DNA from: Cyanobacteria bacterium MAG CAR3_bin_5
GTDB lineage: Bacteria; Cyanobacteriota; Cyanobacteriia; PCC-6307; Cyanobiaceae
Assembly: GCA_026709085.1 (NCBI GenBank)
Contig: JAPOTR010000066.1
Span: 1-36,701, forward strand
Direction: 5' to 3'
DNA: 36,701 nt
Shown: piece after piece, positions 2,919-29,481 of the stretch
Layout of the letters: each line of letters starts with the position of its first letter
How positions within the stretch are numbered: the stretch's first letter is position 1
The notes under the pieces: model-generated
Told to the model about the DNA's origin: nothing
The model's database searches: none
The model's input: only the letters and a program-made list of their open reading frames with translations
Position numbers and translations under genes: made by a program

Positions 2919-4067
2919 ATGGAGGACAAACTCACCCTGATGATCCCTGGTCCCACGCCAGTTCCGGAACGGGTGCTGCAGGCCATGGCCCGTCACCCCA
3001 TCGGCCACCGCAGCGGCGCCTTCAGCGCCACCTTGGAGCGAGTGCAGCAGCAGTTGCAATGGCTCCACCAGACCCGCAATGCCGTCCTGCTGCTCACCGG
3101 CAGTGGCACCGCGGCCATGGAGGCAGGCATCATCAACACCCTCAGCCGCGGGGATCGGGTGCTCTGCGGTGAAAACGGCAAGTTCGGGGAGCGTTGGGTG
3201 AAGCTGGCCCGGGCCTACGGTCTGCAGGTGGAGGTGATTCAGGCGCCATGGGGTCAGCCCCTGGATCCGGCCGCCTTTGCCGCTGCCCTGGAGGCGGATG
3301 GGGACAAAACCATCCGCGCCGTCATCCTCACCCACTCGGAAACCTCCACCGGGGTGCTCAACGACTTGCAGTCCATCGCCGGCCATGTGAAGGCCCACGG
3401 CAAGGCCCTCACCATCGTGGACTGTGTCACCAGCCTGGGGGCCACAGCGGTGCCCATGGACAGTTGGGGGTTGGACGTGGTGGCCTCCGGTTCCCAGAAG
3501 GGCTACATGATGCCCCCCGGCCTGTCCTTTGTCAGCCTGTCCACCCGGGCCTGGCAGGCTTACGAACGCTCCGACCTGCCCAAGTTCTACCTGGATCTGG
3601 GCCGCTATCGCAAAGCCACCGCCGATAAAAGCACCCCCTTCACCCCTGCCGTGAATCTGGTGTTTGCCCTGGAGGCCGCCCTGGCCATGTTGGAGCGGGA
3701 AGGGTTGGCGGCGGTCTTTGCCCGCCATGAACGCCACCGGGCCGCCACCCAGGCCGGCGTCAAGGCCATGGGCCTCAAACTCCTGGCCAAGGAGGGGTAT
3801 GGCAGCCCCGCCATCACCGCCGTGATCCCCGGTGGCGATGCCGAGCGCATCCGCCAGCACATGAAGAAACGCTTTGATGTCCTGCTGGCCGGAGGCCAGG
3901 ATCACCTCAAGGGCCAGATTATCCGCATGGGCCATCTGGGCTTTGTCTGTGATCGGGACGTTCTCACCGCCATTGCCGCTCTTGAAGCAGTGCTCATGGA
4001 ACTGGGGGAGGGTCACATCAAGCCCGGCGCCGGCGTTGCCGCCGCCGCTGCTAAGCTGTGGCCGTAG
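2919..4067 (+). CDS. Class-V aminotransferase (serine-pyruvate/alanine-glyoxylate type)
   Basis: A PLP-dependent fold-type I aminotransferase of 382 residues. It opens with the family phrase LMIPGPTPVPERVL and has LLTGSGTAAMEA near the phosphate-binding region. The aspartate in IVDCVTSLGA contacts the cofactor ring, and the lysine in SGSQKGYMMPPG should form the Schiff base. This group transfers amino groups between serine or alanine and glyoxylate or pyruvate, which fits photorespiratory glycine/serine metabolism. Cyanobacterial members are sometimes annotated as a soluble hydrogenase small subunit. The ATG at 2919 is chosen because MEDKLTLMIPGP is the usual N-terminus; an upstream start at 2889 adds ten unconserved residues. 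It is divergent from cbiD and followed closely by a tRNA gene. Confidence 0.9.
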   Translation: MEDKLTLMIPGPTPVPERVLQAMARHPIGHRSGAFSATLERVQQQLQWLHQTRNAVLLLTGSGTAAMEAGIINTLSRGDRVLCGENGKFGERWVKLARAYGLQVEVIQAPWGQPLDPAAFAAALEADGDKTIRAVILTHSETSTGVLNDLQSIAGHVKAHGKALTIVDCVTSLGATAVPMDSWGLDVVASGSQKGYMMPPGLSFVSLSTRAWQAYERSDLPKFYLDLGRYRKATADKSTPFTPAVNLVFALEAALAMLEREGLAAVFARHERHRAATQAGVKAMGLKLLAKEGYGSPAITAVIPGGDAERIRQHMKKRFDVLLAGGQDHLKGQIIRMGHLGFVCDRDVLTAIAALEAVLMELGEGHIKPGAGVAAAAAKLWP

Positions 4068-4091
4068 GCGGCCCCCTGGGTGGCCATGGAT

Positions 4092-4163
4092 GCGGGTGTA
4101 ATTCAGTGGTAGAATGTCAGCTTCCCAAGCTGAACGTCGCCGGTTCGAGTCCGGTCACCCGCT
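4092..4163 (+). tRNA. tRNA-Gly (anticodon CCC)
   Basis: A 72-nt cloverleaf. The acceptor arms GCGGGTG (4092-4098) and CACCCGC (4156-4162) pair. The D-arm contains TTCAGTGGTAGAAT, and the anticodon stem TCAGC/GCTGA encloses the loop TTCCCAA with anticodon CCC. The T-arm is GCCGG-TTCGAGT-CCGGT. The discriminator base is T, usual for bacterial tRNA-Gly. CCA is not encoded. Confidence 0.93.
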
Positions 4164-4308
4164 TTTCATTCCAGGTTGGCTGTGTCTTGGGTTGACAAGG
4201 GGCCACCTGTTGCCCGTGACCCCCCCAATTCCGGCCAGACCTTGCCGGCGGTATCCCGTGGCTAGGGGGATCAGGCACAGACAACTTCCTCCCTTTTCTC
4301 TCTTAAAG

Positions 4309-4938: not shown

Positions 4939-5025
4939 AGAAAAGGCCCTCAGCGCCCCTGGCGTGATGCCGGAACCGCCATTGTTATCATTGTTGTAGA
5001 TGGGGATGGGTCTGGCCTGTGGCTT

Positions 5026-5445
5026 GACCAAGTTCTTGAATCCATCCACTTCAAACCGGGTCAGCATGGTCGCCTCCACACAAAGCGGGTACGGGCGTTG
5101 ATCCCAATTCAAGCATTGATTCACTGTGGAAGATTCACCATCGTCCCCACACTCTACAGCAGAGTATCAATATCCCGGGCAAAGTCTTTCTCAGTACTGC
5201 CCACTCTGGCGGTGTCCTGGTCGGGGTAGAGGTTCAGATTCACGTAGGCGCGGCGCGGCAAAAGCTGAGGTCGGGATATCGTTGACGCTGCTCACAGAGG
5301 CTCCATCCGCTCCCATGCAGTAGTCTTGGTTCGCGCTCTGCCGGACCGGATCATCCAGGGGATGGGGCATGGCGCCGGGCTCCGTTGGTGACGTGGATTC
5401 CCCCTGCTGGCTTCGGTACGGTTTCCCCTGATCGTAGTCCCACAA
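5026..5445 (-). pseudogene. Decayed duplicate of the chpX / acRAF / ATPase junction
   Basis: This stretch carries short, degraded copies of three neighbouring genes in the same order and strand as the intact 7513-8000 region. 5310-5420 matches the chpX 3' end (MPHPLDDP, SANQDYCMG). 5150-5310 matches the acRAF 3' half (EQRQRYPDLSF, then YVNLNLYPDQD in a shifted frame). 5026-5067 matches the ATPase start (MLTRFEVDGFKNLV). A deletion has joined chpX codons straight to the middle of acRAF, and frames change within the segment, so it cannot encode intact products. It sits downstream of the TOPRIM-like gene at 5488. The best explanation is an old segmental duplication followed by deletion. Confidence 0.75.
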
Positions 5446-5487: not shown

Positions 5488-6105
5488 CTAATCTCCCAAT
5501 GCCTGTAAGGCCGCGATGGTATCGTCACGAAACCGCACCCACGAATCCAGAGAGTCCAATGGGCCTCCTACTGGCAGATTTTCTATCAACTGACGACGAT
5601 GCTCTCCAAAATTATTTTTGAAATTCTTTTTGCGGCGTATACCTTTAGGTGATCCTGCTCGTAATAAAATATCTTCCAATAATCTCTTGGGATCCGCAAT
5701 ATTTTCTATGTTTTGCACTGCTGGCAAGTCGAGATCGTCTCGACCACTAGGCTTGCCAGCTACGCGACGTATTTCGCACTCGTTGAGCAGCAGCCAGGCT
5801 TCCGTCATGCGGACGGGAATAATCCTCACATATGGTCCATCGTGATTGAGTGACTGCACAGCAATCGTAATCTCTTCATAACGCCTCGCAGCGCCCGCGG
5901 CAGGGGTGTTAAGATGATGATCCGCATCGCGCTGAATGAAAAGTAGGTCTGGCTCAGCAGACAGATCCAAGCCTTGCTTCACTTTCTCAGTCAAGGAAGT
6001 TCCGAAGTGAGAAGAAATGCCGTCTGCCTCCGTGGCGCCATGCTGAATCAGCAACCGCTGAATATGATGCACTAGCGCATCATCAGACGACCCTTCGCAG
6101 ATCAA
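5488..6105 (-). CDS. TOPRIM/DUF4276-like protein, partner of the adjacent AAA ATPase (module 1)
   Basis: About 205 residues. The N-terminal LLICEGSSDDALV provides the TOPRIM-type glutamate, and LLFIQRDADHH provides an acidic DxD motif after a beta strand; both are metal-binding features of TOPRIM nuclease folds. Further on, RMTEAWLLL resembles a conserved E-A-W segment of DUF4276-like proteins. It directly follows the ATPase, as in two-gene OLD-like or PARIS-like defence modules, where the ATPase senses and the TOPRIM protein cleaves nucleic acid. The start is uncertain. TTG at 6105 cuts into the first beta strand, whereas the frame extends through VRFLL to an ATT at 6120 that overlaps the ATPase stop and follows AGGAGGTG. 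Function is inferred from motifs and context. Confidence 0.65.
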   Translation of the reverse strand: MICEGSSDDALVHHIQRLLIQHGATEADGISSHFGTSLTEKVKQGLDLSAEPDLLFIQRDADHHLNTPAAGAARRYEEITIAVQSLNHDGPYVRIIPVRMTEAWLLLNECEIRRVAGKPSGRDDLDLPAVQNIENIADPKRLLEDILLRAGSPKGIRRKKNFKNNFGEHRRQLIENLPVGGPLDSLDSWVRFRDDTIAALQALGD

Positions 6106-6119
6106 CAGGAATCGGACAA

Positions 6120-7555
6120 TTATTTCACCTCCTCAAAAGTTGTGGGGAAAGTGAGTTGTACATATTCTGGTGGTGCTATGTAGGACTGCAAGTCCAGCTT
6201 TCCTACTACCGAAGATTGTCTTTCTCCATCATTGCCGTTCTGATCACGCCAGGAACCCAATATGGAACAGCACTTGAGGGGGAAGATCACATCCCCCTCA
6301 GAACTTCTCACTGCCGGATTTTTGGCCAGGACCAAATCGTCTTTGTCTTGAAGTTGCACGAAATACGGTGAGTGGGTTGCCACGATCACTTGCCGCAGTG
6401 GATTGTCGTGATCGACGGCTTCCTCCGCATCCACGGCTATGTCATGGAGCAATCGGTTCATAGCGTTGAGTTTTGCCGGATGGATGCCGTTTTCCGGTTC
6501 TTCCATGCAGAGGACCATACTTTCATCGACGGTCTCGGAAAGCGCCGCCAAGGCCAGGAACCGCAGTGTGCCGTCCGAGATGGAGTTGGCATGGAGTTTC
6601 AGGCCCGAACGTTCCACGATCTCCAAAGCCAGTTGCTGGCGCTGCTTGTCTTCGTCAACGCTCACGCCCTGTACCGGTACCAACTCCGACAAGCGGCTCG
6701 ACACCTGGGCATAGACGTCGTATTCAGGATTGTCTTGCGCTGCTGCCTGGGCCAAGTGCTGCAACGTTGCCGGAATATGGGCGCCGGGCGGCGATGCCAG
6801 GCAGTTGCGTGGTGTGGTCCGGGCGGCGCATGGCGGCTGGATCAAGGGCCAGAACACGCCAACTGCGCATCTCGTTCCGGGCAGCCAGGATGGTGGGGGT
6901 GAACGAGGTGTTTTCCGTGCCAATGATGGTCTTCGCCTCCATTTTGGCGGGCGATGGACGTTCCCGGCCTCTTGAGCCCCCATCCTGGTGGACAAGTATA
7001 GCTGCTTGCCCGGTTGTGGGATCCGGTTTGGTTGAAATAAAGCCAGCCCCCCTGCGGCTGTTGTGTACGACACTATCCAGGAATTTATTTTTTCTGTTGG
7101 GGAATTTTAAGCGACGGATCACCTTCTGTTGAGTGATGTGTTTCAGCTCTTCTTTTTCCAACCGCAAGCCACAACCCGGTCATGGGAGAAGGTTCCGCAT
7201 ACCGGAAAGCAATTTCATACCGCAGAAATGAAGACGATGCTTCAGCTTCACGACCGAAATCATCGCGTACCTTTTTATCAACAATCATTTCTGCTGAAAA
7301 TCGCATACAGGAGATGCGTTCTCCAGCGCCCAGGAACAGCAAGTCTTGTATATTCCCCGTCTCTTCTCCTACATTCCGTGTTTGCAGTGCTGCCTCGTTG
7401 ATGGTGTGGTCCGTGAGTAAAGATAGAAAGCGAATGGCGTCGAAGATATTGGACTTGCCGGCTCCATTGGGGCCGGCAATGCAAGTATACGGCCCGAAAT
7501 CCAGGGAAAAATTCACCAGGTTTTTGAAGCCGTCCACTTCCAACCGGGTTAGCAT
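6120..7555 (-). pseudogene. AAA ATPase (SMC/OLD-like, AAA15/AAA21 type) with two frameshifts (module 1)
   Basis: The gene begins MLTRLEVDGFKNLVNF with Walker A AGPNGAGKSN (residues about 28-37). The frame then changes near 7153-7157 in an A-rich run and again near 6785-6795 in a GCC-rich run. The last part holds SISDGTLRFLAL (signature-like), Walker B VLCMEEPENGIHP and the switch histidine in VATHSPYFV. Pieced together it is about 475 residues, normal for the family. It starts 6 bases after the acRAF stop, so it could be read from the carboxysome operon, and it ends at the TOPRIM-like partner. The two shifts may be real decay or base-call errors; the decayed copy nearby favours decay. Confidence 0.75.
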
Positions 7556-7561
7556 GATCTC

Positions 7562-7828
7562 TTAACCCCCGCCCAGCCCGTCAATGGCCCGGGCAAAGTC
7601 TTCCTCGGCACTGCCCACGGTGGCGGCGTCCTGGTCCGGGTAGATGGTCAGATTCACGTAGGTGCGGCCAAAGCTGAGGTCGGGATACCGCTGACGTTGC
7701 TCACAGAGACGCTCCAGCCGCTCAAGGAAATCGCGCACCTGGGGGTAGTCGGCAAAGGCAAGGCGCCGCTCCAGCCGGGGGGGACGTTGGCGCCGGCTCC
7801 AGGCGGGGTCAAGGGTCGGTTTGTCCAT
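7562..7828 (-). CDS. acRAF-like RuBisCO assembly factor (PCD-like fold)
   Basis: This is an 88-residue protein related to pterin-4a-carbinolamine dehydratase. The core RLAFADYPQVRDFLERLE, RYPDLSFGRTYVNLTI and AEEDFARAID matches the PCD-like proteins found at the end of alpha-carboxysome clusters. There they act as the assembly factor acRAF for form IA RuBisCO rather than as pterin enzymes. The ATG at 7828 lies 4 bases after the chpX stop, so translation is probably coupled. The stop is 6 bases before the start of a frameshifted ATPase. A degraded second copy of its 3' half lies at 5150-5310. Confidence 0.85.
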   Translation of the reverse strand: MDKPTLDPAWSRRQRPPRLERRLAFADYPQVRDFLERLERLCEQRQRYPDLSFGRTYVNLTIYPDQDAATVGSAEEDFARAIDGLGGG

Positions 7829-7832
7829 GGGT

Positions 7833-8990
7833 TCAATGGTGGCCGGGGGTGCGGATCCTCTCGGGACCGCTGGCGACCAGCGCCGTGAGCTGGGCTTGGC
7901 GCAAACGCTCCAGCCACCCCATGCAGTGGTCCCGGTTGGCGCTCTGGCGCCGGGGATCCGGGTCATCCAGGGGATGGGGCATGGTGCCGTTGATGGCCCC
8001 GTTGGTGACGCAGAACATGGCTTTCTGGAAACTCATGCAGATTTTCACGTGGATATCCACCACACCCCGCCCCTGGCTCCGGTATGCAGCCTCCAGGTGG
8101 GCGGGGAGATGACGGTACATGTCTTGCATCAGCAGGCTGGGGGGGATGCCGGCTCCCATGGTGGGCAAGGGGTCGGCAAACAGGGCTCCATAGCCGAATT
8201 GCCCCTGGTCGTGGGGGATTTGCGTGGCCTGGGCATTGAACGAGAGGGTGCCCAGGAAGGGCATTCCCCGCAGAAATACGGCCTCCACGTAGGGAACCGC
8301 CACATCCATGAGGAAGGTGAGTTGGGCGTCTTCCGGCAGGATGGCCACCGTGGCGCCGTGGAGTTGCACCGCATAGCGAATGGGCAGGCCGGCGGCGGCC
8401 ACAAGTCCCGTCTTCACAAACTCCACCACGTCGGCGATGGAGGTGATCCGCCCCTCCCGATGGGCCAGGGCCAAATCCAGGAACAGGTCACTCATGACCC
8501 GCCAGAACTGCCCCAGGGCGTGGGTGGTGGCGGCGGAGCGGATCAACTCCGGCAGGAACTGGGGGAAGAGACCGCTCAATAGCCCCAGCAGGGGATCATG
8601 GCGTCGCTTGAGGCGGGCCACCTGCTGGCAGATACCGGCAAAACGCCCACTTTCCAGAAAGGCGTCCAGCCCGCCGGTGCCATGCCAGAGCATGGCCTTC
8701 TGACAATACTCCGCATATTCAAAGTTAATACGATCATGGTTGAGATGACGCCACAATCTTTCCCAGTTAAGTTCACCGTTGAAGAACCGGAACACAGGGA
8801 AGGGATTCAGGAATTGCTGCTCCCCCTGATAGATCAGGTTGCGGCTGTAGGCATCCAGCACCTCCCCGTAGCTCTCCAGCACACCCACCACCTCCAGCAC
8901 GTGGGTGGGGGACTCCGCCAGCAACGGCACACCGCTCAGCAGCCGCTGCAGCAGGGGGGAGAGGGGATCGGAAGACGGGTCAGCCGCCAT
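7833..8990 (-). CDS. chpX: CO2 hydration protein ChpX (CupB type)
   Basis: A 385-residue CO2 hydration subunit of the NDH-1 CO2-uptake complex (CupA/CupB family). With NdhD4 and NdhF4 it converts CO2 to bicarbonate at the thylakoid membrane. Family phrases include LNPFPVFRFFNGELN, HDRINFEYAEYCQKAM, AVPYVEAVFLRGMPFLG and ADPLPTMGAGIPP. The ATG at 8990 (MAADPSSD) overlaps the ndhD4 3' end by 11 bases, which supports this start; an upstream start at 9050 would lie deep inside ndhD4. The adjacent ndhD4/ndhF4 set is the arrangement of the constitutive CupB-type system in alpha-cyanobacteria. Confidence 0.92.
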   Translation of the reverse strand: MAADPSSDPLSPLLQRLLSGVPLLAESPTHVLEVVGVLESYGEVLDAYSRNLIYQGEQQFLNPFPVFRFFNGELNWERLWRHLNHDRINFEYAEYCQKAMLWHGTGGLDAFLESGRFAGICQQVARLKRRHDPLLGLLSGLFPQFLPELIRSAATTHALGQFWRVMSDLFLDLALAHREGRITSIADVVEFVKTGLVAAAGLPIRYAVQLHGATVAILPEDAQLTFLMDVAVPYVEAVFLRGMPFLGTLSFNAQATQIPHDQGQFGYGALFADPLPTMGAGIPPSLLMQDMYRHLPAHLEAAYRSQGRGVVDIHVKICMSFQKAMFCVTNGAINGTMPHPLDDPDPRRQSANRDHCMGWLERLRQAQLTALVASGPERIRTPGHH

Positions 8991-10557
8991 GGACCAGCAC
9001 CTTCTGGAGGACGTCACTTGCTGCTGGCTGGCTGGCGCCGGCCATGGCAACGGCGGTGAAGGCGCCGCTGGCGGGCTGACCCAGGGCCGACGTGCTGGCC
9101 ACCGCCAGATTTGTCAATCCCTGGGGCCAGAGACCCACCAACACCACCCCTGCCGCCAGTACCACTGCTGGCGCCTGTCGCGCCAGCCCCGCCAGGGGGA
9201 GGAGGGCTGGTGGTTTTCCGTCGGGTTCCGTGGCCAGGCGGCCGAAGAAAGCCCGGTTCACCAGCAGCAGGAAGTAGACGGCTGTCAAACCGGAGCCCAC
9301 CATGCTCAGCAGTGTGGCCAGCGGGAAGGTAAGGAGGCTACCACGAAACACCATCAGTTCCGCCACGAAACCAGCCATCCCCGGAATCCCGGCACTGGCC
9401 ATTGCCGCCAGAATCATCAGCCCCCCTGTGAGGGGAAGGCCCCGCTGAGGATTCAGCAGGCCCCGCAACACCGTCAGATCCCGGGTGCCCGTTGCCTGAT
9501 AGATCACCCCCACCAGCAGAAACATCAGACCGGAAATCAAGCCATGGGCCAACATCTGCAGCAGAGATCCCAACAGACTGACGGGGGTGGCGGCAGCAGC
9601 GGCCAGGAGCACGTAACCCATATGCCCTACGGAACTGTAGGCCACCATGCGCTTCATGTCGGTCTGGGCAATGGCGGCGAGGGAGCCAAAGAGCACCGAC
9701 ACCGCCGCCCAGCCGGCCAGACCGGGGGACAGCAGCCCCCAGGCCTGGGGGAAGAGACTCAGGCAGAAGCGCAGCAGGCCGTAGGTGCCCAGTTTGAGCA
9801 GCACCCCCGCCAACAGCACGGAGATGGGGGTGGAGGCCTCGGTGTGGGCATCCGGTAGCCAGCTATGGAAAGGGAACAGGGGGATTTTGATCCCGAAACC
9901 CACCAGCAGCGCCCCCATGAGCAGCAGTTGGGTTCCCAGGCCCAGTTGCTGGCTCAAAACGGGGTTGATGCTGAAATCCAGGCTACCGGTGGCCAACGCC
10001 AATCCCAGGAAGCCCACCAGGATCAGCACGCCGGACACCGCTGTGAAGATCAGAAATTTCGTGGCCGCATAGGCGCGCCGCCGTCCGCCCCAGATGGCAA
10101 TGAGCAACCAGAGGGGGATCAGTTCCAGCTCGTAGAACAAGAAGAACAGCAGCAGGTTCTGGGCCAGAAAGGCGCCGTTGACCGCGCCGCTGATCAACAG
10201 CAGGAGAGGGAAGTAGCTGCGGGGGCGGGGTGTGGTGAGCGGTGAGATGGCCACCGCCACCAGGGAGAGGATCCCGTTGATCAGCAGCAGGGGAAGGGAC
10301 AGACCGTCCACCCCCAGCCGGTAGTCCAGACCCAGCGCCCCCAGCCAGGAGGCCTGTTCCAGGAGTTGCATCTGTCCTCTGGCAGGGTCGAACCGGAACA
10401 GCACCGCCACCATCAGCAGCAACTGCGCCGTCAGCACCGCCAGGGAGAGGCGCCGCAACCAGACAGGGGACGCGCCAGGCAACAGGGTCAACCCCAGAGC
10501 GCCCAGGAAGGGCGTCAGGAGCACCAGGGAGAGAATGGAAGGCGCCGCCGCGATCAT
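8980..10557 (-). CDS. ndhD4: NAD(P)H dehydrogenase-1 subunit NdhD4
   Basis: A proton-pumping antiporter-like (MrpD/NuoM) subunit of 525 residues with about 14 predicted membrane helices. The central helices carry the glutamate in LFYELELIPLWLL and a lysine/histidine-rich part (KIPLFPFHSWLPDAHTEA) typical of NdhD/NuoM. Its position between ndhF4 and chpX identifies it as the NdhD4 paralogue of the CO2-uptake NDH-1 complex rather than a respiratory NdhD1. The ATG at 10557 overlaps the ndhF4 stop as TGATG, indicating coupled translation. Confidence 0.93.
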   Translation of the reverse strand: MIAAAPSILSLVLLTPFLGALGLTLLPGASPVWLRRLSLAVLTAQLLLMVAVLFRFDPARGQMQLLEQASWLGALGLDYRLGVDGLSLPLLLINGILSLVAVAISPLTTPRPRSYFPLLLLISGAVNGAFLAQNLLLFFLFYELELIPLWLLIAIWGGRRRAYAATKFLIFTAVSGVLILVGFLGLALATGSLDFSINPVLSQQLGLGTQLLLMGALLVGFGIKIPLFPFHSWLPDAHTEASTPISVLLAGVLLKLGTYGLLRFCLSLFPQAWGLLSPGLAGWAAVSVLFGSLAAIAQTDMKRMVAYSSVGHMGYVLLAAAAATPVSLLGSLLQMLAHGLISGLMFLLVGVIYQATGTRDLTVLRGLLNPQRGLPLTGGLMILAAMASAGIPGMAGFVAELMVFRGSLLTFPLATLLSMVGSGLTAVYFLLLVNRAFFGRLATEPDGKPPALLPLAGLARQAPAVVLAAGVVLVGLWPQGLTNLAVASTSALGQPASGAFTAVAMAGASQPAASDVLQKVLVHGG

Positions 10558-23217: not shown

Positions 23218-23775
23218 TCAACCGTCCCTGACCATCCCTTGAATGCTGTCAACGAAGACCTGAAAACTTTTGGATGTATTGGAGCCGAGCGACAATTTAG
23301 AACCAATTTCCCTTGATCCAGAAACTTTCTGGTAGGCGCCTTGGGTGATCTTTTTCAGTTCCTTGGCTGGCGAACCAATCCTATCCGGTATGCGATAGTT
23401 TCTCTTATTTTTGTACTGATTCGCTAAGCCAGTCATATTGAGACCATCCTCAACCGCAGTAAGATCACCAAAATACCAGCTTTCCAACTCGCGGCAGATA
23501 ATTCTGACAATCACGTGATCCTGCTTCGCCTCGGGACACTTCTCAATAAGTTCCGTTTTTAAGTTCCGGCAGTCCGAACTATCCTGATCGCACATGACGA
23601 CAAAAGTTGTCTCCGGTGGCCAGTGGCGCAGGCGGCGCGTCATCTGGCGCTTCAGATCCTGCTTGCCCTCAAAGACCACGTACTTTACCGCCACACCAGG
23701 GGGCAGCAGGCGTGGAAGCAGTCCCTTCAGCATCTCCTTTGCGGACTGCTCCTCCAGCAAAAACGCAAGAATCAT
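23218..23775 (-). CDS. DUF4276/TOPRIM-like protein, partner of the adjacent AAA ATPase (module 2)
   Basis: A 185-residue protein starting MILAFLLEEQSAKEML, where a glutamate follows the first beta strand. VVFEGKQDL and the acidic FVVMCDQDSSDC follow, consistent with a TOPRIM-like metal site. IICRELESWYFGDLTAVE matches the E-x-E-x-W-(F/L)-x-x-D segment typical of DUF4276. The ATG at 23775 overlaps the ATPase stop as ATGA, so the two are translated together. In known two-gene systems of this layout the small protein is the effector nuclease. The C-terminal third is lysine- and serine-rich. GC is lower than in surrounding genes, suggesting transfer. Function is inferred. Confidence 0.75.
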   Translation of the reverse strand: MILAFLLEEQSAKEMLKGLLPRLLPPGVAVKYVVFEGKQDLKRQMTRRLRHWPPETTFVVMCDQDSSDCRNLKTELIEKCPEAKQDHVIVRIICRELESWYFGDLTAVEDGLNMTGLANQYKNKRNYRIPDRIGSPAKELKKITQGAYQKVSGSREIGSKLSLGSNTSKSFQVFVDSIQGMVRDG

Positions 23776-24977
23776 CCTTCCGGGTCCACCCCCTCGAAGG
23801 AGCCCTGTTTCCACAAGCGCCCCATCTTGTCGCCATCCTCCATCCAGGCCTTCAACTGAGCGTTGTCGCTTGCCCTGTGAATCGTGGTGTAGCCCCCCTG
23901 CTTTTGCAGCCAGAACACCTCTTCCACTTGCGCAGCGTTGAGGAAATCCGGTGAATGGGTGGAGATCAACACTTGCCCTCCCCGTTGGGCATAGGCGCGA
24001 AACTCTTCAGCCAACTCCTCCAGAAGGCTGGGATAAAGTTGATTCTCCGGCTCCTCAACGCACAGAAGAGGATGGGGGTCAGGGTCATGGAGCAAGGTCA
24101 GATAGGCCAGCATCTTGATGGTGCCGTCAGAAACATGGCGGGCCAGAAACGGGTCTGCAAACGCCCCGTCCTGGAATTTGAGCAAGACTCGCCCCTCCTC
24201 CGTCTGCCTGGATTCCACCTGGGTGATGCCGGGAACCCGCCGCTGGAGGGCATTTTTGATGGTGGAGAAGACCTGGGGATGGTTGTCGTGAAGGTATTCG
24301 ATCACAAGGGCGAGATTCTCCCCCTCCCGGGACAGGTGTTCCCCATAGCCGGCCTCCGGCTCGTTGCGGGCGCGGCTGACGTGGAAATCGGACACGTGCC
24401 AGCGTTCGATCAGGTCACCCAGGGCAACCACGGCAGGGAAGCGCTCGAACTGGGCCAGCCCCTTAATGGCCAGCAGATCGGGAGATTTCAAGGTCTGCTC
24501 CTCACGCTCAAGCTCGGCTGCCGTCTTCACCTCTGTGATCTCGTTGGTGACGGCAGAGCCTTTGCCCTGCTTGAAGTCCAGGAAATGCCATGGTGCGCCG
24601 TATTGTCCACGACGATAGCGCAGGACTTCCCGCTCCACCACCGGTTTACCGCGCTGATCAGCATTGATGGAGATGGCGTAGCTGATCAGTGGCGGCTTCT
24701 CATGCTTCTCAGACTGGATGCGATAGGCAACCTCAATCTTGATTGGCCCGTCACTATTGCGGCTGCGCACCTCGTGGAAGCCGCGGCGGCCGCCCAGCTT
24801 GGCCAACGCCGTGCCCACGTTGGCGTTCATGGCATCCCGCAGGAAGCCGAACACCGCGAAGAGGCTGGACTTACCCGTGCCGTTAGCGCCAACCAACACC
24901 GCAAGCCGGGGAATGTGCAGCATCTCCACATGGCGGAAGGCGCGGAAGTTGCGGATGCGGATGCGCTCAATCTGCAT
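23772..24977 (-). CDS. AAA ATPase (SMC/OLD-like, AAA21 type), module 2
   Basis: A 401-residue intact ATPase beginning MQIERIRIRNFRAFRHVEM, typical of RecF/OLD-like proteins. Walker A is VGANGTGKSS (residues about 32-41) and the signature-like HVSDGTIKMLAYL lies at about 285. Walker B is LLCVEEPENQLYP, and the switch histidine is in ISTHSPDFLNAA. The segment between Walker A and the signature should form the arm and coiled-coil insert. It overlaps its DUF4276-like partner by four bases, forming a two-gene operon divergent from the DUF2079 gene. A role in anti-phage defence is suggested by architecture only. Confidence 0.85.
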   Translation of the reverse strand: MQIERIRIRNFRAFRHVEMLHIPRLAVLVGANGTGKSSLFAVFGFLRDAMNANVGTALAKLGGRRGFHEVRSRNSDGPIKIEVAYRIQSEKHEKPPLISYAISINADQRGKPVVEREVLRYRRGQYGAPWHFLDFKQGKGSAVTNEITEVKTAAELEREEQTLKSPDLLAIKGLAQFERFPAVVALGDLIERWHVSDFHVSRARNEPEAGYGEHLSREGENLALVIEYLHDNHPQVFSTIKNALQRRVPGITQVESRQTEEGRVLLKFQDGAFADPFLARHVSDGTIKMLAYLTLLHDPDPHPLLCVEEPENQLYPSLLEELAEEFRAYAQRGGQVLISTHSPDFLNAAQVEEVFWLQKQGGYTTIHRASDNAQLKAWMEDGDKMGRLWKQGSFEGVDPEG

Positions 24978-27572: not shown

Positions 27573-28298
27573 TCAATGCCTGTCTACATGAATTGCATGA
27601 AGAAACTCTTCTTGAAAGCGTGCTGCTTCTGTGAGTGTACCGGATACTCTTGGCCATGCTTGACTGATTTCTTGGTTTCTTTCACGATAGTCACGTATTT
27701 TCTTGGAGAAACGTTGCCCTTGGGGTAAAGCCTTGAGTTGCCCTGCAGGATCGGGGTGGCATTCCCAATTCTGTTGCTGAAAGATGGCGTTGTCTGGAAA
27801 GATAGCGGTCAGCACCCAGGCATCCATGGTTTTGGAAGGAGTGCAGAGGATGGTCTGTGGCGGGCAGCTCTCCTCCCCCAGCCAACCGAGGAGAACCTTT
27901 CGTAATGCATCCGTTGTGTGGTGGGATGGCGGGCAGGGCTTTGCGCACGGGAGATCATTCTGTGGTGGGGATTGGATCCCTGTGCTAGCGTATGTCTTGT
28001 CTGCAACATCGGCATCTACATGAATAATTAAGAGGTCCCATTTGGATGGGGACAGTTTTGAAAAGCTAGACAGAGAACCGTCACCTTTCTCAGTCGCCTG
28101 ACGGCTCCAATGATACACCCCACCCCATCCAGGTCCATGTAGCCTAAAGTTTGCTCCAAAGACAGCGGAGTCCTCCGCCGGCTGCAGGGTATCAAACTCA
28201 AACTCAGCACCAGCCAGCAAGGAACGGACAATTGCTTCAAGGACAATGCTGTCGGTTGGACCTTCAACAACAACCGCGATTCGCAACGGCTCAGACAT
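27573..28298 (-). CDS. TOPRIM-like protein, partner of the adjacent AAA ATPase (module 3)
   Basis: A 241-residue protein. RIAVVVEGPTDSIVLEAIV carries the TOPRIM glutamate right after the first beta strand. WDLLIIHVDADVADKTY carries the D-x-D motif. LCTPSKTMDAWVLTAIFPD is the counterpart of the E-A-W segment in modules 1 and 2. The ATG at 28298 overlaps the ATPase 3' end by 8 bases; a GTG at 28307 is an alternative. By analogy with two-gene OLD/PARIS-like systems it would be the nucleic-acid-cleaving effector. I cannot assign a named family with certainty. Confidence 0.75.
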   Translation of the reverse strand: MSEPLRIAVVVEGPTDSIVLEAIVRSLLAGAEFEFDTLQPAEDSAVFGANFRLHGPGWGGVYHWSRQATEKGDGSLSSFSKLSPSKWDLLIIHVDADVADKTYASTGIQSPPQNDLPCAKPCPPSHHTTDALRKVLLGWLGEESCPPQTILCTPSKTMDAWVLTAIFPDNAIFQQQNWECHPDPAGQLKALPQGQRFSKKIRDYRERNQEISQAWPRVSGTLTEAARFQEEFLHAIHVDRH

Positions 28299-29481
28299 TG
28301 GGAACACCTCCCAGGTGTCCCATCACCCACAGCCGAGATAAGGACAGACCGTGCTTTGCTGCTTTTCCCAACAGGTCTTGGTCAACAACTACACGGCGAA
28401 TGGATGTGCGGCCTGAGGAGGTGCGTGATACCGTGAACAGACGCACACGATCATCTTGCAGGAGAAGGCCATCCAGAATCAACGGGTTGTGGGTGGTCAG
28501 CAGAATCTGGCGCGGCTCATCCATGGCCATATGCCATCGACACAAGCACTCCATCAGCGCCCGGGCCAATCTGGGGTTCAGGCCATGGTCTGCATTGTCC
28601 ACTGCACAGAGAGGTGGACTGTCTTTTTGTCCAGTGATGACCGCTAAAAAGAGGGCATATAAGGCCCCTTCAGAAGCTTCATAGGCAGATAGAACGTTTC
28701 GTCCCTCTTCCATGAAACGATCACGAAATTCGATTGTAGTCTTTACAGAGGATTTGATTGGAGACAACGGCTGTTGAACCTCTGACGTTAATTTGATTTC
28801 CTTAGCCCAATCAATGAGATCCAGAACATCTTCACAAATCGTCCTGATCTTGTCATCCTCATAACCCTGTATTACCAGATTGTGAACCGCCCTCAAAAGA
28901 CCACCTCCCGATAAGCCCAACGGCGTTTTGGGCTGTGTTTCTGGCATAACGCCGCGCAACACAGCCGTGGTTGGGGAAAAGATGACGTAGCGTTGCAAAG
29001 ACTCCAAGAGGGAGAGGGTGGGTCCTTCAGCAACTTCAACAGCTTTCAGGGCGGCCAGGCCCCGTTCCTTGTTCCACTCCTTGCTTGCGGGCGAGCGCCC
29101 AGCCAGTTGGACGCCATTCTCTTTCCAGGACTCACTCTTGAACGTCCAGGCCGGATCCGGATCCTCCGGGTTGTTCCATAGGGATACTCCGTATTCTGCT
29201 GACGCGCCATGGGCTTCAAAACGCAGATGGCCAGGGGTTTTTACTCCAGGCTTAGCGGGGAAGGCGGACTTGTAGAGCTTGGGAACACCAGGGCGAACTC
29301 CTCTTGCCCGCAATGCCTCCTCATCAACCTTGCCGTTGGCAGCAGCAGAAAGTACCCCCAGAGCTTCCAGCAGATTACTCTTGCCGCTGCCGTTGGCGCC
29401 AATGAAGACGTTCACCTGCCCCAGCTCAACTGTCACATCCTCCAGGGACTTGAACGTCTTGACCGAAAACCTTTCAATCAC
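28291..29481 (-). CDS. AAA ATPase (SMC/OLD-like, AAA15 type) with atypical Walker B, module 3
   Basis: A 396-residue ATPase beginning MIERFSVKTFKSLEDVTVEL, with Walker A GANGSGKSNLLEAL at residues about 28-41. A signature-like element, SAYEASEGALYALFLA, lies at about 265. The Walker B position reads PPLCAVDNADHGLNPRLARA, so the usual E-E-P-E is D-N-A-D, with asparagine where the catalytic glutamate is expected. The switch histidine is kept in LTTHNPLILDG. It forms a two-gene operon with the TOPRIM-like gene. The module lies between direct repeats of a PMT-type remnant. Other ATPases with a D-N-x-D-x-x-L-N-P variant exist to my knowledge, so it may still be active. Confidence 0.83.
   Translation of the reverse strand: MIERFSVKTFKSLEDVTVELGQVNVFIGANGSGKSNLLEALGVLSAAANGKVDEEALRARGVRPGVPKLYKSAFPAKPGVKTPGHLRFEAHGASAEYGVSLWNNPEDPDPAWTFKSESWKENGVQLAGRSPASKEWNKERGLAALKAVEVAEGPTLSLLESLQRYVIFSPTTAVLRGVMPETQPKTPLGLSGGGLLRAVHNLVIQGYEDDKIRTICEDVLDLIDWAKEIKLTSEVQQPLSPIKSSVKTTIEFRDRFMEEGRNVLSAYEASEGALYALFLAVITGQKDSPPLCAVDNADHGLNPRLARALMECLCRWHMAMDEPRQILLTTHNPLILDGLLLQDDRVRLFTVSRTSSGRTSIRRVVVDQDLLGKAAKHGLSLSRLWVMGHLGGVPNV

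What the first reader, a model, noticed from the sequence alone, without database searches (positions are those of the whole stretch)
6120..7828. Defence-like ATPase fused to the 3' end of the carboxysome/CO2-uptake operon, and decaying
The ATPase start is only 6 bases after the acRAF stop, on the same strand, so it would be carried on carbon-fixation transcripts. It has two frameshifts. High constitutive expression from this operon could have selected for its inactivation.
Basis: partly seen in the sequence, partly recalled or inferred. Interest (0 to 1): 0.6.

Follow-up and report, generated by a model that had tools for sequence, protein, structure and literature searches.

The report
Broken defence module after carboxysome operon
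In a cyanobacterium that lives in sponges, a two-gene module resembling antiviral defence systems sits at the end of the carbon-fixation operon, in the place where relatives keep a Rubisco-activating gene, and it has been broken there, as in several related strains.

Summary
On the minus strand the ATPase starts 6 bases after the acRAF stop and is split by two frameshifts: 5- and 2-base deletions relative to open relatives. It matches one PADLOC family, HEC-01A, in three consecutive pieces; the next gene matches HEC-01B and has lost a usual start codon. The genus is the sponge symbiont Ca. Synechococcus spongiarum. The same ATPase occupies the same slot in 4 of 8 other genus loci: open in 2 (one to its contig end), riddled with shifts in 1, a 28-codon stub in 1. 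Lesions differ. In 0 of 4 judgeable loci is the two-gene module intact. Outside the genus the slot holds cbbX (Rubisco activase) in 66 of 69 loci; CbbX is missing from all 10 genus genomes. A degraded second cupA-acRAF-ATPase junction lies at 5015-5393. This strain's ATPase shows no excess of amino-acid changes, so the breakage is young. That high operon expression selected for it is untested: the ATPase is open in two relatives at the same slot, although related modules elsewhere in these genomes are intact more often (8 of 9). Known kind of module, unusual address, ordinary decay.

The parts
7833..9050 (-). cupA (ChpXY CO2 hydration protein); the likely start is at 8990
   Evidence: Pfam ChpXY 1.1e-153; 88-93% identical in 7 genus contigs and 83% in L011
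7562..7828 (-). [quoted passage not shown]
   Evidence: Pfam Pterin_4a 4.2e-06; an acRAF match was found in 78 of the 80 cupA loci
7556..7561 (-). 6-base gap between acRAF stop and ATPase ATG
   Evidence: no terminator-like site there
6120..7555 (-). broken HEC-01A-type ATPase gene in three frames
   Evidence: PADLOC PDLC04184 in three consecutive pieces; 83%, 84% and 73% identity to the open L006 protein
7165..7172 (-). frameshift 1: 5-base deletion relative to relatives (approximate place)
6785..6790 (-). frameshift 2: 2-base deletion relative to relatives (approximate place)
5488..6117 (-). partner gene, HEC-01B-type; open frame, but no ATG, GTG or TTG at the place where relatives start
   Evidence: PADLOC PDLC04210 4.5e-18; start context; ORF from an internal TTG at 6105
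5015..5393 (-). degraded second copy of cupA 3' part, acRAF 3' part, long spacer and first bases of the ATPase
   Evidence: 5024-5071, 5167-5312 and 5299-5393 match 7512-7559, 7581-7723 and 7907-8010 at 83, 84 and 79%; spacer like that of L005
23218..24977 (-). a second, open HEC-01-type pair on the other side of the carboxysome genes (for comparison, not part of the finding)
   Evidence: PADLOC HEC-01 models 2e-191 and 4.2e-73

Best explanation
A two-gene HEC-01-type module (SMC/OLD-like ATPase plus a small partner) settled directly after acRAF in an ancestor within the Ca. Synechococcus spongiarum genus, in the slot where other alpha-cyanobacteria have cbbX, which this genus lacks. If intact, it would probably work like other ATPase plus small-effector defence pairs: the ATPase senses infection and releases or activates the partner, which stops the cell (inferred from family resemblance, not shown). 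With no promoter-like or terminator-like site at the junction, it would ride on the cupA-acRAF transcript (inferred). In this strain it was disabled recently by two small deletions in the ATPase and loss of the partner's start codon (shown in sequence); other lineages lost it by other lesions or lack it (shown). The likeliest reason for the loss is that the module is dispensable or costly in genomes that hold several similar pairs (inferred). A tandem duplication or recombination at this junction, now degraded, came earlier.
For: Three pieces of one HEC-01A model in order, HEC-01B next door. Same slot in L005, L006, L010 and a stub in L008. Lesions not shared: window 2; L010 seven frame-breaking indels and 2 stops; L006 partner cut by a repeat of about 130 bases with 9 matches in its genome; L008 ATPase ends after 28 codons. 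Pair adjacent in all 6 loci fetched from outside the genus. Young loss: changes on the window branch 41 synonymous / 24 not, on its sister L005 42 / 20; sister pair support 98/98. cbbX next to acRAF in 66 of 69 non-genus loci, named by TIGR02880 at 1.5e-159; CbbX found in 0 of 10 genus genomes at E up to 1e-3, while a clean CbbX query matched 62 of 149 relatives and none of the 10. Redundancy: an open HEC-01 pair and a PDC-M31 pair in the same window.
Against: No transcript data and no reads. L011 and L009 have neither cbbX nor the ATPase, so the module did not necessarily displace cbbX; some near-complete relatives outside the genus (G012, G018, G025) also gave no CbbX match. The tree of the genus is mostly unresolved, so one gain with losses and several gains are not separated. 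Partner fold match to PARIS/OLD chains is weak and tied with unrelated rows. Defence function was not tested here.
Confidence: 0.72

Rival explanations
1. High, constant expression from the carbon-fixation operon made the module harmful at this address and selected for its inactivation.
For: 0 of 4 judgeable modules at the slot intact against 8 of 9 related pairs elsewhere; different lesions in each lineage.
Against: ATPase open at the slot in L006 and L005 with dN/dS near 0.10; comparison made after the fact, small, of related genomes and different subfamilies; with ATPase frames alone 2 of 5 against 8 of 9, p 0.095; no expression data.
Confidence: 0.2
2. The frameshifts are assembly or sequencing errors and the gene is intact.
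For: No reads available; only two small deletions, no stop in register, amino-acid changes not in excess.
Against: Neighbouring genes are in single frames; the deletions are 5 and 2 bases long; the partner's start is also lost; relatives show independent breakage.
Confidence: 0.07
3. The ATPase has taken over the job of CbbX as a Rubisco activase at this slot.
For: It occupies the cbbX slot and the genus lacks CbbX.
Against: It belongs to the SMC/RecF/OLD class, not the AAA+ class of CbbX; it travels with HEC-01B outside this operon; it is broken or absent in most of the genus loci.
Confidence: 0.02
4. The frames are joined by programmed ribosomal frameshifting.
For: Both breaks leave the downstream frame coding.
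Against: Two shifts in one gene, both explained by deletions absent from open relatives.
Confidence: 0.01

Closest known systems
HEC-01 (PADLOC-DB, Hma-embedded candidate 01)
   Same: ATPase matches HEC-01A and the adjacent gene matches HEC-01B, same order and strand
   Different: Both genes are damaged here, and the pair lies at the end of a carbon-fixation operon
PARIS (AriA/AriB)
   Same: SMC-type ATPase plus small partner; AriA models match the ATPase weakly; the top VIA-align row for the partner model is the PARIS complex, Z 6.7 over 181 residues
   Different: HEC-01A scores far above AriA (123 against 36 bits for the first piece); the partner has no AriB match; Z is under 8 and tied with unrelated rows
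OLD family nucleases
   Same: An OLD entry is the best solved-structure sequence match of the ATPase profile, 2e-09 over the first 43 positions; OLD C-terminal chains at Z 5.7-6.0 for the partner
   Different: Two separate genes here; weak fold match
CbbX Rubisco activase
   Same: Same place after acRAF
   Different: A different class of ATPase; see membership test

Membership tests
HEC-01 | ATPase matching a HEC-01A profile along its length | tested here: met
   PDLC04184, positions 1-116, 127-239, 244-397 of 464 over three frames
HEC-01 | adjacent partner matching a HEC-01B profile | tested here: met
   PDLC04210 4.5e-18; partner next to ATPase in all 6 outside loci examined
HEC-01 | both genes able to be translated whole | tested here: not met
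   two frameshifts in the ATPase and no usual start codon for the partner: remains of a member, not a working one
HEC-01 | antiviral activity | not testable with these tools
   needs phage challenge
PARIS | AriB-type partner | tested here: not met
   no AriB match up to E 0.1
PARIS | partner with TOPRIM fold like AriB | tested here: inconclusive
   Z 6.7, rmsd 5.5, 181 aligned, tied with unrelated rows; Foldseek none at E up to 0.001
MADS (MAD3) | score above the NCBIfam cut-off of 420 | tested here: not met
   124.4 bits for the open L006 protein
CbbX | homology to CbbX | tested here: not met
   CbbX queries found no match in the window's genome or the genus; CbbX is not among the 25 of 27 NCBIfam rows shown for the open L006 protein

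The most novel reading that the evidence does not exclude
Loss of the Rubisco activase gene opened a slot at the end of the carboxysome/CO2-uptake operon; a defence module used it, was expressed with carbon fixation, and has been disabled independently in each lineage because that address makes it costly: a case of operon position deciding the fate of a defence system.
Probability: 0.15. Interest if true: 0.6.

Novelty: new member of a known kind. Interest (0 to 1): 0.36.

Why it matters
It gives a small natural series (open, newly broken, long broken, stub, absent) of one defence-type module at one defined address in a core metabolic operon, so that the cost of position can be tested. The genus-wide absence of CbbX, the Rubisco activase that the literature calls typical of most alpha-cyanobacteria (passage of PMC9477826), also matters for how carbon fixation is kept going in sponge symbionts.

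Tried and rejected
Programmed frameshifting, assembly error and CbbX replacement were considered and set low (see rivals). The ATPase structure model was poor (mean pLDDT 54.1) and was not searched. The partner model (pLDDT 77.4) gave no Foldseek match at E up to 0.001 and only weak VIA-align rows; sequence search of solved structures with the partner gave nothing of use. Promoter and terminator scans found no more than shuffles give. In one search the cupA dN/dS rows that pair L004 or L008 with another locus are invalid (a stop in the upstream extension shifted the codons; only the L004-L008 row looks sound) and were dropped; one search was run with a shorter cupA. NCBIfam and Pfam gave no family for the partner. 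Literature: one paper holds 'hma-embedded candidate' (passages read); no paper holds both 'carboxysome operon' and 'anti-phage'; 4 hold CbbX and sponge, seen as a listing, with passages of one read.

Full report
Setting. The window is from a 2.37 Mb, 67-contig genome of the sponge-symbiont genus: the best cupA matches are Ca. Synechococcus spongiarum and sponge MAGs at 83-93% (that the MAGs are from sponges is recalled for some of them). On the minus strand it holds carboxysome genes (rbcL, csoS2, csoSCA, csoS4), then ndhF, ndhD and cupA, then acRAF, the ATPase and its partner.

Observation. The ATPase ATG lies 6 bases past the acRAF stop. The gene is in three frames. One HEC-01A model covers them in order, 1-116, 127-239 and 244-397. 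Relative to the open L006 gene there are a 5-base and a 2-base deletion. Walker-type motifs are present but divided between pieces (seen in the translations; motif names recalled). The partner, 205-209 residues, matches HEC-01B and is open, but where L006 and L010 have ATG the window has no ATG, GTG or TTG.

Relatives. Nine genus loci including the window could be read after acRAF. ATPase sequence is present in 5 of 9: window, L005 (SH4), L006 (jk18x22bins.40), L010 (isolate 1) and, as a 28-codon stub, L008 (SB0662_bin_14). It is not seen in L004, L009 and L011; L007 keeps only a spacer-like stretch before the sequence diverges, and L004 and L007 have only about 600 bases after acRAF. L006 is open over 480 codons, L005 to its contig end; L010 has seven frame-breaking indels and two stops. 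The partner is cut short in L006 (by a repeat with 9 matches in that genome and 7 in G003) and in L010. The whole module can be judged in four loci (window, L006, L008, L010) and is intact in none; L005 cannot be judged. One of the ten genus genomes (G003) gave no cupA match.

Age. Pairwise dN/dS of the ATPase is 0.104 (L005-L006) and 0.144 (window-L005); cupA window-L005 is 0.140. Changes on the window branch are 41 synonymous and 24 not, on L005 42 and 20. The window's copy was therefore probably kept in use until lately. L010 has 69 and 57, fitting older decay.

The slot. Of 72 non-genus loci, 69 have acRAF and at least 1000 bases after it; 66 of these have cbbX next, at a median 58 bases from the end of the acRAF match. 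The gene is CbbX by NCBIfam (two examples). None of 10 genus genomes matches CbbX (the same query as matched 62 of 149 genomes). [quoted passage not shown] Because L009 and L011 have neither gene, loss of cbbX may have come first.

Spacer and duplication. The acRAF-ATPase gap is 83 (L005), 47 (L006), 6 (window) and -7 (L008, L010). A degraded second junction at 5015-5393 carries the long spacer; that stretch is identical to L005 at 152 of 182 aligned bases. So the tight window junction is probably derived from a longer one, and the locus was once duplicated or recombined. Among the nine genus loci only the window shows this second copy, but most contigs end too soon to tell.

Distribution and kind. 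The L006 ATPase matches 5 of 400 family genomes at E up to 1e-30, 4 of them in the genus, and 6 of 386 across the phylum, the window's included. In all 6 outside loci fetched the partner is adjacent. The partner's predicted fold resembles PARIS and OLD chains weakly. PARIS AriB is a Toprim nuclease that cleaves tRNA (title and abstract of PMC12409363 in the listing), so a nuclease-type effector is a fair but unproven guess.

Cause of decay. Nine related HEC-01-type hits in genus genomes away from this slot (E up to 1e-60, the window's own second pair included) served as a rough yardstick: 8 of 9 have the ATPase in one stretch over nearly its whole length and a partner match beside it, 1 is cut. 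Against 0 of 4 at the acRAF slot Fisher gives 0.007; for ATPase frames alone, 8 of 9 against 2 of 5, 0.095. This leans towards a position effect but is after the fact, with related genomes and a different subfamily. Sponge symbionts in general are enriched in defence genes (abstract and passages of PMC5649159), so redundancy is an equally good reason.

Verdict. Real observation, sound naming as defence-like, ordinary decay of a known kind of module at an unusual address; the selection story is open.

Noticed in passing
window 23218-24977 (-): A second HEC-01-type pair, open in both genes, on the far side of the carboxysome genes.
   Followed up: partly
window 27573-29481 (-): A PDC-M31 A/B pair, another ATPase plus small-partner module (E 5.7e-143 and 1.6e-67); three such modules lie within about 24 kb of this window.
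   Followed up: no
genus-wide: CbbX, the Rubisco activase typical of alpha-cyanobacteria, has no match in any of the 10 genus genomes.
   Followed up: partly
window 5015-5393: Degraded second copy of the cupA-acRAF-ATPase junction with a long spacer.
   Followed up: partly
window 3000-4166: This flank is conserved in 8 other genus genomes but on contigs other than the acRAF one where both are known; in G009 the acRAF contig runs on for more than 60 kb, so gene order beyond the module differs there.
   Followed up: no
L006:9345-9480: A repeat of about 130 bases that cuts the partner gene; 9 matches in G009 and 7 in G003, none in the other 8 genus genomes.
   Followed up: partly
L016:7453-8406: In Aphanocapsa feldmannii, outside the genus, cbbX is in the slot; part of its sequence reads as masked.
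   Followed up: no
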